Positions 4,356-7,570 of a stretch of DNA of 64,000 bases are shown piece after piece (within the stretch, counting starts at the first letter, position 1; each line of letters starts with the position of its first letter). The stretch is taken from positions 1-64,000 of the forward strand of contig JAUHVL010000017.1 in assembly GCA_030425045.1 (NCBI GenBank). The letters run 5' to 3'. Position numbers and translations under genes: made by a program. Source of the DNA: a bacterium (GTDB taxonomy: Bacteria > Bdellovibrionota > Bacteriovoracia > Bacteriovoracales > Bacteriovoracaceae). Below the pieces are notes generated by a model. It searched no databases. It was not told the DNA's origin and worked only from the letters and a program-made list of their open reading frames with translations.

Positions 4356-5012
4356 TTATGGATATGCTTTTTGAACTTCTTCACTCAAAAGCTTTCTTAA
4401 TGCTTGGAAACTAAAAGCCTCGGGACTCTTTCCGTTCACAAAAAAAGTAGGAGTTCCTCTCACCCCAAGGGCCCTTAAGTCGGCCAGATCCTGGTCGATG
4501 ATCTTTTGATACTCGGGGTTTTTCATATCTTCTTTTAGCTTTTTAACATCGACACCGATCTGAGGTAAAAACTCATAAATAAGTTCGACTTGTGGATGAT
4601 GGTGGCTTCCCCATTTTGGCTGAGTTGCAAAGAGATGTTCAAGAGACTCCCAGTATTTTCCTTGAAGTTTCGATGCTTCAAGAGCTCTTATCACTTCTTT
4701 AGAATTGCCGTGAAAAGGAGCGTAACGTACAACGAGTTGAACTTTTCCCTCAAAGTCTTGTAATAATTTTTTAATATGTGGATAGAAGGCGCGACAACTT
4801 TCACATTCTGGATCTAGAAATTCAATAAGATAAACTTTAGCGTCTTTATTCCCATAACGAGGAGAATAATCTCGAATAAAAAGTTCTGCTTTTTCTTCAG
4901 CGAGAAAACTTAGCTTTTTCTGCTGGGACTCTTTATAAAGACTCGCACCGATTATAAAAAAAGCAATAATAAGTGCTGTCGTACCAATATAAAAATAATG
5001 TTTATTCTTCAT
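4356..5012 (-). CDS. DsbA/BdbD-like thiol:disulfide oxidoreductase, membrane-anchored
   Basis: This 218-residue protein has an N-terminal signal anchor (about residues 7-25) followed by a thioredoxin-like DsbA domain. The active-site pair is C70-E-S-C73 in the motif DPECESC, and the cis-proline loop is visible as GVRGTPTFFVNG. The enzyme introduces disulfides into exported proteins. Its start overlaps the end of the DsbB-like gene by 11 bp, so the two form one translationally coupled unit: DsbB reoxidises DsbA. The CxxC dipeptide ES differs from the classical PH, which usually changes the redox potential. Confidence 0.85.
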   Translation of the reverse strand: MKNKHYFYIGTTALIIAFFIIGASLYKESQQKKLSFLAEEKAELFIRDYSPRYGNKDAKVYLIEFLDPECESCRAFYPHIKKLLQDFEGKVQLVVRYAPFHGNSKEVIRALEASKLQGKYWESLEHLFATQPKWGSHHHPQVELIYEFLPQIGVDVKKLKEDMKNPEYQKIIDQDLADLRALGVRGTPTFFVNGKSPEAFSFQALRKLLSEEVQKAYP

Positions 5013-5427
5013 AAAACTTTTTCCTCTGGAGATAAATTAAAATAAATCCAATAAGACTAAAGGCAAAAAATGAAAGCATCGGAATCGTTATAAAGCCTAG
5101 CCATTCAATATAAACAGTGGCACATGAAACACCTTCTCTACAAGGTGAAGCTGTTTCTGGAACTATCTCATAATGCAATAAATTATGATAAACCGCCATT
5201 ATCCAACCAATGACCACCAAAGGAATCGAGAAATAAAATGTTTCTTTAGCTCCTCTAAAAGAGCCAACTAAAAACAAGGCCACAAGTGGGTACATTGCTA
5301 TCCGTTGATACCAACAAAGTGCACAAGGAGGAAACTCCATGACCTCACTAAAAAACAGACTACCGAACATGGATATCATAGAAATCAGCCAACAAATAAA
5401 TATTAACCGAGAAGATTGTTCTTTCAT
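5002..5427 (-). CDS. DsbB/BdbC-like disulfide bond formation protein
   Basis: This is a 141-residue inner-membrane protein with four helices. The two essential cysteine pairs of DsbB are present: C35-A-L-C38 after the first helix and C96...C102 (ASPCREGVSC) in the second periplasmic loop. DsbB passes electrons from DsbA to quinones. The frame can start at a GTG at 5433, but AAAGG lies five bases before the ATG at 5427, so that start is preferred. It is the promoter-proximal gene of the DsbB-DsbA pair. Confidence 0.85.
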   Translation of the reverse strand: MKEQSSRLIFICWLISMISMFGSLFFSEVMEFPPCALCWYQRIAMYPLVALFLVGSFRGAKETFYFSIPLVVIGWIMAVYHNLLHYEIVPETASPCREGVSCATVYIEWLGFITIPMLSFFAFSLIGFILIYLQRKKFYEE

Positions 5428-5556
5428 AATCACCTTTAATACAAAAAAGTATAATACAAAAAGAAAATAAGAAGAATATTTACTTTTAATGTTTTAGACA
5501 ATCTTTGTCGTTTAGCGAATAGCACTTCTCATAGTAAAATATTGGCAGGAGAAAGT

Positions 5557-6650: not shown

Positions 6651-6750
6651 ACTCACTCCTCTAACTTTTTGACTATATTTTAGACACTCGATCAATTTTA
6701 AACAATCTCATAAGATGAACGCTCAAGTAAACTCAATTTAATACATACTT

Positions 6751-6768
6751 TAGGCACGACTATTGCAA
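6751..6768 (+). promoter_or_regulatory. sigma-54 (RpoN) -24/-12 promoter
   Basis: The sequence AGGCACGACTATTGCA fits the sigma-54 consensus TGGCAC-N5-TTGCA. The invariant GG is at 6753-6754 and the invariant GC at 6765-6766, exactly ten bases apart. Transcription would start near 6778, leaving a short leader before the ATG at 6805. Sigma-54 promoters need an AAA+ enhancer-binding protein; no clear upstream activator site was found in the 100 bp before it. Confidence 0.65.
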
Positions 6769-6804
6769 ATACATATACAAATTTCAACTTTAGGATGCCC
6801 ACTA

Positions 6805-7479
6805 ATGAGAATTAAGACTATTATCTCAACTCTATTCTTTGTTTTTCTTTTTGATTCATTCGCTCAAAAAGATCTTACTGCTCATCGTGCTGCCGGTAAA
6901 TTTGAAGAGCTTAATTTAAATGACTTACCTCAGTGGGACAAAGGAACCTTTAAAGAGAGCTTTAGAGAAATTAGAGATAAGAAGTTCTTAATGTTTGAAG
7001 GAAAAAAAAGAAGAATTCCTTGGATGTTTGTTCGAGATGGCTGTCATATGAGATCTACCCACTTTATTGAAGAAGCTGCCAGAATGGGGCTTGAAAAACC
7101 AAAGAAGATATTTATTTTCGGCTCTCTTGAGATGAAGGGAAATATCATTCCTCATGGATCTGTTGAGCCTTGGTTTCATGCCGCTCCTATTATAAAAGTC
7201 GACGGAGAACCTTTTGTTTTGGATCCATCAGTTAGTTTCTCAAGGCCACTTCCCCTAGAGAAATGGATATCTTTGATCGTTAAGGATCGCTCTAAAACGG
7301 CTTATTCTATTTGTGAGTCAGGAACCTATATGCAAACTTCAAGTTGTCACAATCCTGGCCCAATAGATCAAAAAAGACTTACTGAGGAAACACAGTTATT
7401 TTTAAAGTTTGAAAGAAATATCTTGAGTTATATGGGATTAAAGTTTAAAGAAGAAAGTGATGAATCAAACAAAGAATAA
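6805..7479 (+). CDS. secreted protein-glutaminase-like (protein deamidase) enzyme
   Basis: This 224-residue exported protein has a signal peptide at residues 1-20, ending SFA. The core matches the protein-glutaminase fold, a papain-like deamidase. Cys80 lies in RDGCHMRS at the start of a long helix, His125 in PWFHAAP, and Asp140 in VLDPS, in the order C-H-D expected for the catalytic triad. Enzymes of this family turn protein-bound glutamine into glutamate. The frame opens 14 codons earlier, but the ATG at 6805 gives the signal peptide and lies behind a sigma-54 promoter. A 36-residue membrane ORF overlaps its 3' end. Substrates may be host or prey proteins, but that is inference. Confidence 0.65.
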   Translation: MRIKTIISTLFFVFLFDSFAQKDLTAHRAAGKFEELNLNDLPQWDKGTFKESFREIRDKKFLMFEGKKRRIPWMFVRDGCHMRSTHFIEEAARMGLEKPKKIFIFGSLEMKGNIIPHGSVEPWFHAAPIIKVDGEPFVLDPSVSFSRPLPLEKWISLIVKDRSKTAYSICESGTYMQTSSCHNPGPIDQKRLTEETQLFLKFERNILSYMGLKFKEESDESNKE

Positions 7480-7570
7480 AATTAACTATTTTAGAGTTGC
7501 CTATAAGTCAGCATTACTGATCGCCGTTTTGGCCGTTTGGTATTTCTTCTATACCGATCTTTTAAAATAA
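7460..7570 (+). CDS. 36-residue single-pass membrane protein overlapping the deamidase gene
   Basis: This small reading frame starts 20 bp before the stop of the glutaminase-like gene and encodes a basic N-terminus (MNQTKNKINYFRVAYK) followed by one hydrophobic helix (SALLIAVLAVWYFFYT). That is the classic layout of a small inner-membrane protein. The overlap suggests translational coupling. It has only a weak purine-rich ribosome site. It could be a partner or protective factor for the deamidase, or a free-standing small protein. Confidence 0.5.
   Translation: MNQTKNKINYFRVAYKSALLIAVLAVWYFFYTDLLK

What the first reader, a model, noticed from the sequence alone, without database searches (positions are those of the whole stretch)
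6751..7479. Secreted protein-glutaminase-like enzyme behind a sigma-54 promoter
A near-consensus -24/-12 element (AGGCAC-N5-TTGCA, GG and GC exactly ten bases apart) lies 39 bp before the start of an exported protein with a C80-H125-D140 arrangement. Sigma-54 in this group of bacteria is tied to life-style switches. A deamidase under such control could act on host or prey proteins, or on the cell's own envelope during a stage of the cycle.
Basis: partly seen in the sequence, partly recalled or inferred. Interest (0 to 1): 0.65.

Follow-up and report, generated by a model that had tools for sequence, protein, structure and literature searches.

The report
Exported protein-glutaminase in a sigma-54 regulon
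This gene encodes an exported enzyme of the protein-glutaminase family, and its on-switch has the same two parts (a sigma-54 promoter and a palindrome upstream of it) as dozens of other genes for exported proteins in related, probably predatory, bacteria, so it looks like one member of a common export programme that I found no description of.

Summary
The ORF (6805-7479, 224 aa) is a genuine member of the protein-glutaminase family (PF18626, 71.8 bits, cut-off 25). Its C80/H125/D140 align exactly with the Cys41/His82/Asp102 columns of Chryseobacterium protein-glutaminase, and its predicted structure (pLDDT 90) has the solved protein-glutaminases as best PDB matches. It has a signal peptide but no room for the 114-residue pro-region.

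The -24/-12 element is the best in the 64 kb, the genome has RpoN, and such sites here lie between genes, close before starts, unlike reversed-control sites.

The main addition is a palindrome, TGTCTAA-N3-TTAGACA (12 of 14 at 6670-6686), 81 bp upstream of the -24 element. It recurs upstream of other sigma-54 promoters of exported-protein genes. In relatives of the same family perfect copies are about 34 times commoner than the reversed control. Of 71 copies read, 40 have a sigma-54 element downstream, nearly all at 50-99 bp (null 5.6%), and 30 of 39 following genes have signal peptides (subtilases, papain-type and cell-wall hydrolases among them).

So the enzyme appears to be one output of an undescribed sigma-54 programme for exported proteins. 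Activator, substrate and role in predation are not shown. The two closest orthologues lack both elements.

The parts
6670..6686 (.). palindromic upstream element TGACTATATTTTAGACA, 12 of 14 positions of TGTCTAA-N3-TTAGACA; inferred enhancer (activator-binding) site
   Evidence: consensus tested on held-out sites in own genome and in related genomes
6751..6767 (+). sigma-54 -24/-12 element TAGGCACGACTATTGCA
   Evidence: RpoN present
6778..6778 (+). predicted transcription start, about 12 nt after the GC of the -12 element (inferred)
   Evidence: not measured
6792..6795 (+). AGGA, probable ribosome-binding site, 9 nt before ATG
   Evidence: sequence
6805..7479 (+). CDS of the exported protein-glutaminase-like protein, 224 aa plus stop
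   Evidence: PF18626 71.8 bits; PDB profile matches; orthologues at 65-67% identity L003, L004
6805..6864 (+). signal peptide, residues 1-20, cleavage after SFA (predicted by eye)
   Evidence: sequence; N-terminal helix in model; signal peptides also in L003 and L004
7042..7044 (+). catalytic Cys80 codon
   Evidence: invariant in 22 homologues; aligned with PG Cys41
7177..7179 (+). catalytic His125 codon
   Evidence: invariant; aligned with PG His82
7222..7224 (+). catalytic Asp140 codon
   Evidence: at least 90% conserved; aligned with PG Asp102

Best explanation
The gene encodes an exported papain-fold cysteine amidohydrolase of the protein-glutaminase family: Cys80 attacks the side-chain amide of glutamine in a protein or peptide, His125 and Asp140 assist, and ammonia and glutamate are left. 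It is made without the large inhibitory pro-region of the Chryseobacterium enzyme. It is transcribed alone from a sigma-54 promoter (6751-6767). An unidentified regulator, most simply one bacterial enhancer-binding protein, binds the palindrome at 6670-6686, 81 bp upstream, and switches it on together with a set of other exported proteins, many of them hydrolases. Shown by computation: family membership, triad alignment and fold, promoter, palindrome, and the repeated palindrome/sigma-54/exported-gene arrangement in this and related genomes. Inferred: deamidase activity, export, an enhancer-binding protein as the binder, and joint use of the regulon (attack on or digestion of prey, or nutrient scavenging).
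For: Family: PF18626 at 71.8 bits; profile of 22 homologues hits 8z3i (2e-32), 3a54/3a56 and 2zk9 (about 1e-21), all protein-glutaminases, with Cys, His and Asp aligned. Structure: pLDDT 90.2, pTM 0.84; Foldseek best PDB matches are 8z3i (1.8e-9), 2zk9, 3a56, 2ksv, then NTAQ1. Promoter. Sigma-54 consensus in 39 genomes: 162 exact matches against 9 reversed (my sum). Palindrome: noticed upstream of sigma-54 sites, then tested. In own genome, of 8 sites with at most one mismatch not used to define it, 4 have a sigma-54 element of score 25 or more downstream (null 0.024; p 2e-5). In relatives, perfect copies about 102 against 3 reversed within the family (my sum), and 40 of 71 with a sigma-54 element against 5.6% null. 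Exported genes: 30 of 39 downstream genes with signal peptides against 26 of 67 window genes (p 0.0002). Members: subtilases, papain C1, M15, C92 amidase, Lnb_N, cell-wall hydrolase, GDSL, PLD, PAD-type deiminase. Chance of a palindrome with at most 2 mismatches in the right 86-bp interval is about 6e-4.
Against: The window's palindrome has two mismatches and its -24 box has A for the T before GG. The two closest orthologues (65-67% identity) have neither element in 300 bp upstream, so the control is not conserved with the gene. 31 of 71 perfect palindromes in relatives have no sigma-54 element at that score, and one distant homologue (L036) has a one-mismatch palindrome 91 bp before its start with hardly any room for one; the binder may therefore also act elsewhere or not be an enhancer-binding protein. 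None of the 11 bEBP loci read carries a palindrome with at most two mismatches. Foldseek TM-scores are moderate (0.42-0.66). No expression or activity data. My signal-peptide rule is crude and its background rate in the window is already 40%.
Confidence: 0.72

Rival explanations
1. The protein is a papain-fold cysteine enzyme of another activity (protease, transglutaminase, or N-terminal-glutamine amidohydrolase like NTAQ1) rather than a side-chain protein deamidase.
For: The fold is shared: NTAQ1 structures are the next Foldseek matches at 4e-4, and a weak transglutaminase-like Pfam hit appears (DUF553, E 0.08). The residues around the Cys (VRDGCHMRST) differ from the usual YPDDGCYARA.
Against: Sequence profile and fold both put solved protein-glutaminases far ahead, with no protease family at comparable level.
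Confidence: 0.17
2. The -24/-12 match is a chance look-alike and the gene is transcribed from an ordinary promoter.
For: 0.28 such matches are expected by chance in the whole window; the element is absent from both close orthologues.
Against: Best site in the window, correctly placed and oriented; reversed-control sites are almost never intergenic; a second, independent element lies at the usual distance; no sigma-70-like site on the + strand there.
Confidence: 0.05
3. The palindrome is the site of a separate regulator (a repressor or a sigma-70 activator) that acts at exported genes in general; it is not an enhancer for sigma-54.
For: 31 of 71 perfect copies in relatives show no strong sigma-54 element, some still before exported genes (L197, L201, L208; also L036).
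Against: 40 of 71 do, with the -24 box nearly always 50-99 bp away, ten times the null rate; that is where enhancer-binding proteins usually bind.
Confidence: 0.2
4. The exported genes are a nutrient- or stress-response set with no tie to predation.
For: Sigma-54 classically serves nitrogen metabolism and envelope stress (own knowledge); protein-glutaminase releases ammonia.
Against: Nothing decisive; the members with known families are mainly exported hydrolases, which suits feeding on macromolecules of any source.
Confidence: 0.4

Closest known systems
Protein-glutaminase of Chryseobacterium proteolyticum (EC 3.5.1.44; PDB 2zk9, 3a54, 3a56, 2ksv) and FBPG of Flavobacterium (8z3i)
   Same: Family (PF18626), Cys-His-Asp triad, fold, signal peptide
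   Different: 18-20% identity in the structural alignment; no room for the 114-residue pro-region (59 residues from the predicted cleavage site to the Cys, against 40 in the mature enzyme plus 114 in the pro-form; PMC6132073); the usual PDDGCYARA / PVDGCYARAH motif is VRDGCHMRST here
N-terminal glutamine amidohydrolase NTAQ1
   Same: Papain-like fold, glutamine amide hydrolysis
   Different: Enzyme of the eukaryotic N-end-rule pathway acting on N-terminal Gln; much weaker match (4e-4 against 1.8e-9)
Sigma-54 regulons driven by one enhancer-binding protein through palindromic upstream sites (NtrC-, ZraR-, NorR-type; own knowledge)
   Same: Architecture: palindrome about 50-100 bp upstream of a -24/-12 element
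   Different: Other palindrome; targets are exported proteins, many of them hydrolases; activator not identified

Membership tests
Protein-glutaminase family (PF18626, Gln_deamidase_2) | score above the curated family cut-off | tested here: met
   71.8 bits against 25
Protein-glutaminase family (PF18626, Gln_deamidase_2) | Cys-His-Asp triad in the positions of PG Cys41/His82/Asp102 | tested here: met
   alignment; conservation; distances in the model not measured
Protein-glutaminase family (PF18626, Gln_deamidase_2) | fold of solved protein-glutaminases | tested here: met
   best matches, TM moderate (0.42-0.66)
Protein-glutaminase family (PF18626, Gln_deamidase_2) | signal peptide / export | tested here: met
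   residues 1-20 by sequence; predicted only
Characterised pro-protein-glutaminases (Chryseobacterium type) | pro-region of about 114 residues between signal peptide and mature enzyme | tested here: not met
   Cys at residue 80, so only about 19 residues more than in the mature enzyme (PMC6132073)
Protein-glutaminase, EC 3.5.1.44 | deamidation of protein-bound glutamine | not testable with these tools
   needs an assay
Sigma-54-dependent promoter | GG-N10-GC within a -24/-12 consensus | tested here: met
   6751-6767
Sigma-54-dependent promoter | RpoN and enhancer-binding proteins in the genome | tested here: met
Sigma-54-dependent promoter | upstream activator site | tested here: inconclusive
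   palindrome 6670-6686 with the right place and company; binding itself not tested
Sigma-54-dependent promoter | start of transcription about 12 nt after the -12 element, RpoN-dependent | not testable with these tools
   needs 5'-end mapping

The most novel reading that the evidence does not exclude
Bacteriovoracaceae share an undescribed sigma-54 regulon in which one enhancer-binding protein, reading TGTCTAA-N3-TTAGACA, switches on a changing set of exported hydrolases and protein-modifying enzymes (including this pro-region-less protein-glutaminase and, in a relative, a peptidyl-arginine-deiminase-like protein) for attack on or digestion of prey.
Probability: 0.4. Interest if true: 0.78.

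Novelty: new variant of a known kind. Interest (0 to 1): 0.6.

Why it matters
How the Bdellovibrio-like bacteria coordinate their large exported enzyme repertoire is, as far as I could find, little known. A short palindrome plus a sigma-54 element that predicts exported-protein genes across the family gives a testable handle: which enhancer-binding protein reads it, when it fires, and which exported proteins belong to one programme. It also gives a natural context to a protein-glutaminase, an enzyme family known mainly from food technology, and an example without the large pro-region.

Tried and rejected
TTG start at 6763: overlaps the -12 element, rejected. Conservation of the promoter in the close orthologues: looked for, absent. 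Conserved gene neighbourhood: none in L003 or L004. Exact 8-mers shared by promoters: no better than shuffles; only the dyad stood out. Autoregulation as a pointer to the activator: none of the 11 bEBP loci has the palindrome with at most 2 mismatches. Viral structure library: nothing convincing. Perfect sigma-54 sites in relatives taken without regard to the palindrome: 6 of 15 well-placed genes with signal peptides, no more than background, so export is tied to the palindrome subset rather than to sigma-54 as such. Literature on sigma-54 in Bdellovibrio-like bacteria: only the listing of bd0843.

Full report
What is there. The ORF runs from ATG 6805 to the stop at 7477-7479 (224 aa). It has a Sec signal peptide (residues 1-20) and a PF18626 domain (residues 50-156, 71.8 bits, cut-off 25). 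The window lies in a 3.97 Mb genome in 91 contigs. The closest orthologues found, at 65-67% identity over the alignment, are in MAGs labelled Bacteriovoracaceae, so the organism is very probably of that family. The genome holds three more PF18626 genes.

Enzyme. In an alignment of 22 homologues from loci fetched here, C80, R83, H125 and A127 are invariant and D140 is conserved in at least 90%. A profile of that alignment finds the solved protein-glutaminases 8z3i, 3a54/3a56, 2ksv and 2zk9, and the aligned residues are C80/C41, H125/H82 and D140/D102: the spacings of 41 and 20 residues in the printed 3a56 sequence agree with the known triad (triad numbers from own knowledge). The AlphaFold2 model has pLDDT 90.2; its best PDB matches are the same enzymes, then NTAQ1. 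I had no coordinates, so the triad distances themselves were not measured. Only 59 residues separate the predicted cleavage site from the catalytic Cys, against 40 in the mature Chryseobacterium enzyme plus a 114-residue pro-region (PMC6132073): the large pro-region is missing. Most other homologues in the phylum have the Cys at residues 103-127. Two C-terminal cysteines (C169 and C179 region, pattern C...Y....C) are shared by the close and many distant homologues, which suits a disulfide in an exported protein (inference).

Promoter. TAGGCACGACTATTGCA at 6751-6767 differs from YTGGCACRN4TTGCW at one place. It is the best site in the window and the only one with at most one mismatch. In the whole genome this search gives 30 sites against 15 for the reversed pattern, so a match alone is worth little. 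But 19 of the 30 are intergenic and 12 lie 15-60 bp before a start, against 1 and 0 of the 15 controls. RpoN is encoded, with about 11 proteins of the enhancer-binding type. In 39 related genomes exact matches number 162 against 9 reversed (my sum).

The palindrome. Ten of the 12 well-placed sites precede genes with signal peptides. Comparing their upstream DNA showed TGTCTAA-N3-TTAGACA at 45-96 bp before the -24 box in about nine of them, including the window gene (6670-6686, TGACTATATTTTAGACA, 12 of 14, 81 bp upstream); sigma-54 sites before other kinds of genes mostly lack it. Because the motif was read from these same sequences, I tested it elsewhere. In the own genome, at 2 mismatches, 34 places against 27 controls is unremarkable, but the 11 with at most one mismatch are telling: leaving out those used to define it, 4 of 8 have a sigma-54 element of score 25 or more at 54-74 bp (null 0.024, p 2e-5), and two further perfect copies (L135, L136) sit before signal-peptide genes with weaker elements. 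In 112 related genomes, perfect copies number about 102 against 3 reversed in the own family and about 21 against 2 in other families of the phylum (my sums). I read 71 of these places: 40 have a sigma-54 element of score 25 or more (null 5.6%), with the -24 box 34-108 bp away (nearly all 50-99), and most downstream genes start 20-60 bp further on. Of the 39 with a gene, 30 have signal peptides by my crude rule, against 26 of 67 other genes of the window (p 0.0002).

What the set contains. Pfam names in relatives: three subtilases (L188, L192, L232), a papain-type protease (L209), an M15 peptidase (L191), a C92 papain-like amidase (L186), Lnb_N periplasmic proteins (L185, and L208, which has the palindrome without a recognisable sigma-54 element), a PLD-like protein (L220) and a Porphyromonas-type peptidyl-arginine deiminase family protein (L211). 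In the own genome: a cell-wall hydrolase (L148), a GDSL-type hydrolase (L136, weak sigma-54 element), a beta-barrel protein (L164) and many exported proteins without a family. A secreted protein-modifying hydrolase such as the window enzyme fits this company.

How it most likely works. RNA polymerase with sigma-54 waits at 6751-6767; an activator at 6670-6686, brought round by DNA bending, opens it; the enzyme is exported and deamidates glutamines in proteins outside the cytoplasm. Promoter and palindrome are shown as sequence features far above chance; the activator, the activity and the occasion are inferred. I put sigma-54 control at about 0.93, membership of the shared set at about 0.85, side-chain deamidation at about 0.75, and a role in feeding on other cells at about 0.4.

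Limits. Neither element is present in the two close orthologues, so this gene joined the set, or left it there, after they diverged; the set seems to be defined by its regulator and by export rather than by fixed genes. 31 of 71 perfect palindromes lack a strong sigma-54 element, so the binder may have other uses. The scoring weights for -24/-12 and the signal-peptide rule are mine. No paper found in the held library describes a sigma-54 regulon in this group; most subscription papers are not covered.

Noticed in passing
window 7460-7570 (+): A 36-codon ORF (MNQTKNKINYFRVAYKSALLIAVLAVWYFFYTDLLK) with one likely membrane helix overlaps the end of the enzyme gene; no counterpart was seen after the two close orthologues.
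   Followed up: partly
window 4356-5433 (-): Adjacent genes that look like a DsbA-like thioredoxin-fold protein and a DsbB-like membrane protein lie 1.4 kb upstream on the other strand.
   Followed up: no
L021, L022, L023, L025, about 108-117 bp before the starts: Homologues from another family of the phylum share an element like TRAGCAYN5TTGCA at a constant distance before the gene, resembling a -24/-12 element with AG in place of GG.
   Followed up: no
L055 and L068, just upstream of the sigma-54 site: Two sigma-54 sites in the own genome share a similar upstream stretch (GCTAAC...TTTACAGTTGTC) and have no gene start within 100 bp; they may belong to a small RNA or a second regulon.
   Followed up: no
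L071/L078 (G000:C81) and L111: Response-regulator-type genes start 34-45 bp after near-perfect sigma-54 elements; the one in the own genome is itself an enhancer-binding protein, suggesting self-activation, and its promoter lacks the palindrome.
   Followed up: partly
L026, L027, L031, L032, L035: Many Bacteriovoracaceae carry long (about 510-580 aa) exported proteins with the protein-glutaminase-like domain near the C-terminus, a separate multi-domain branch of the family.
   Followed up: no
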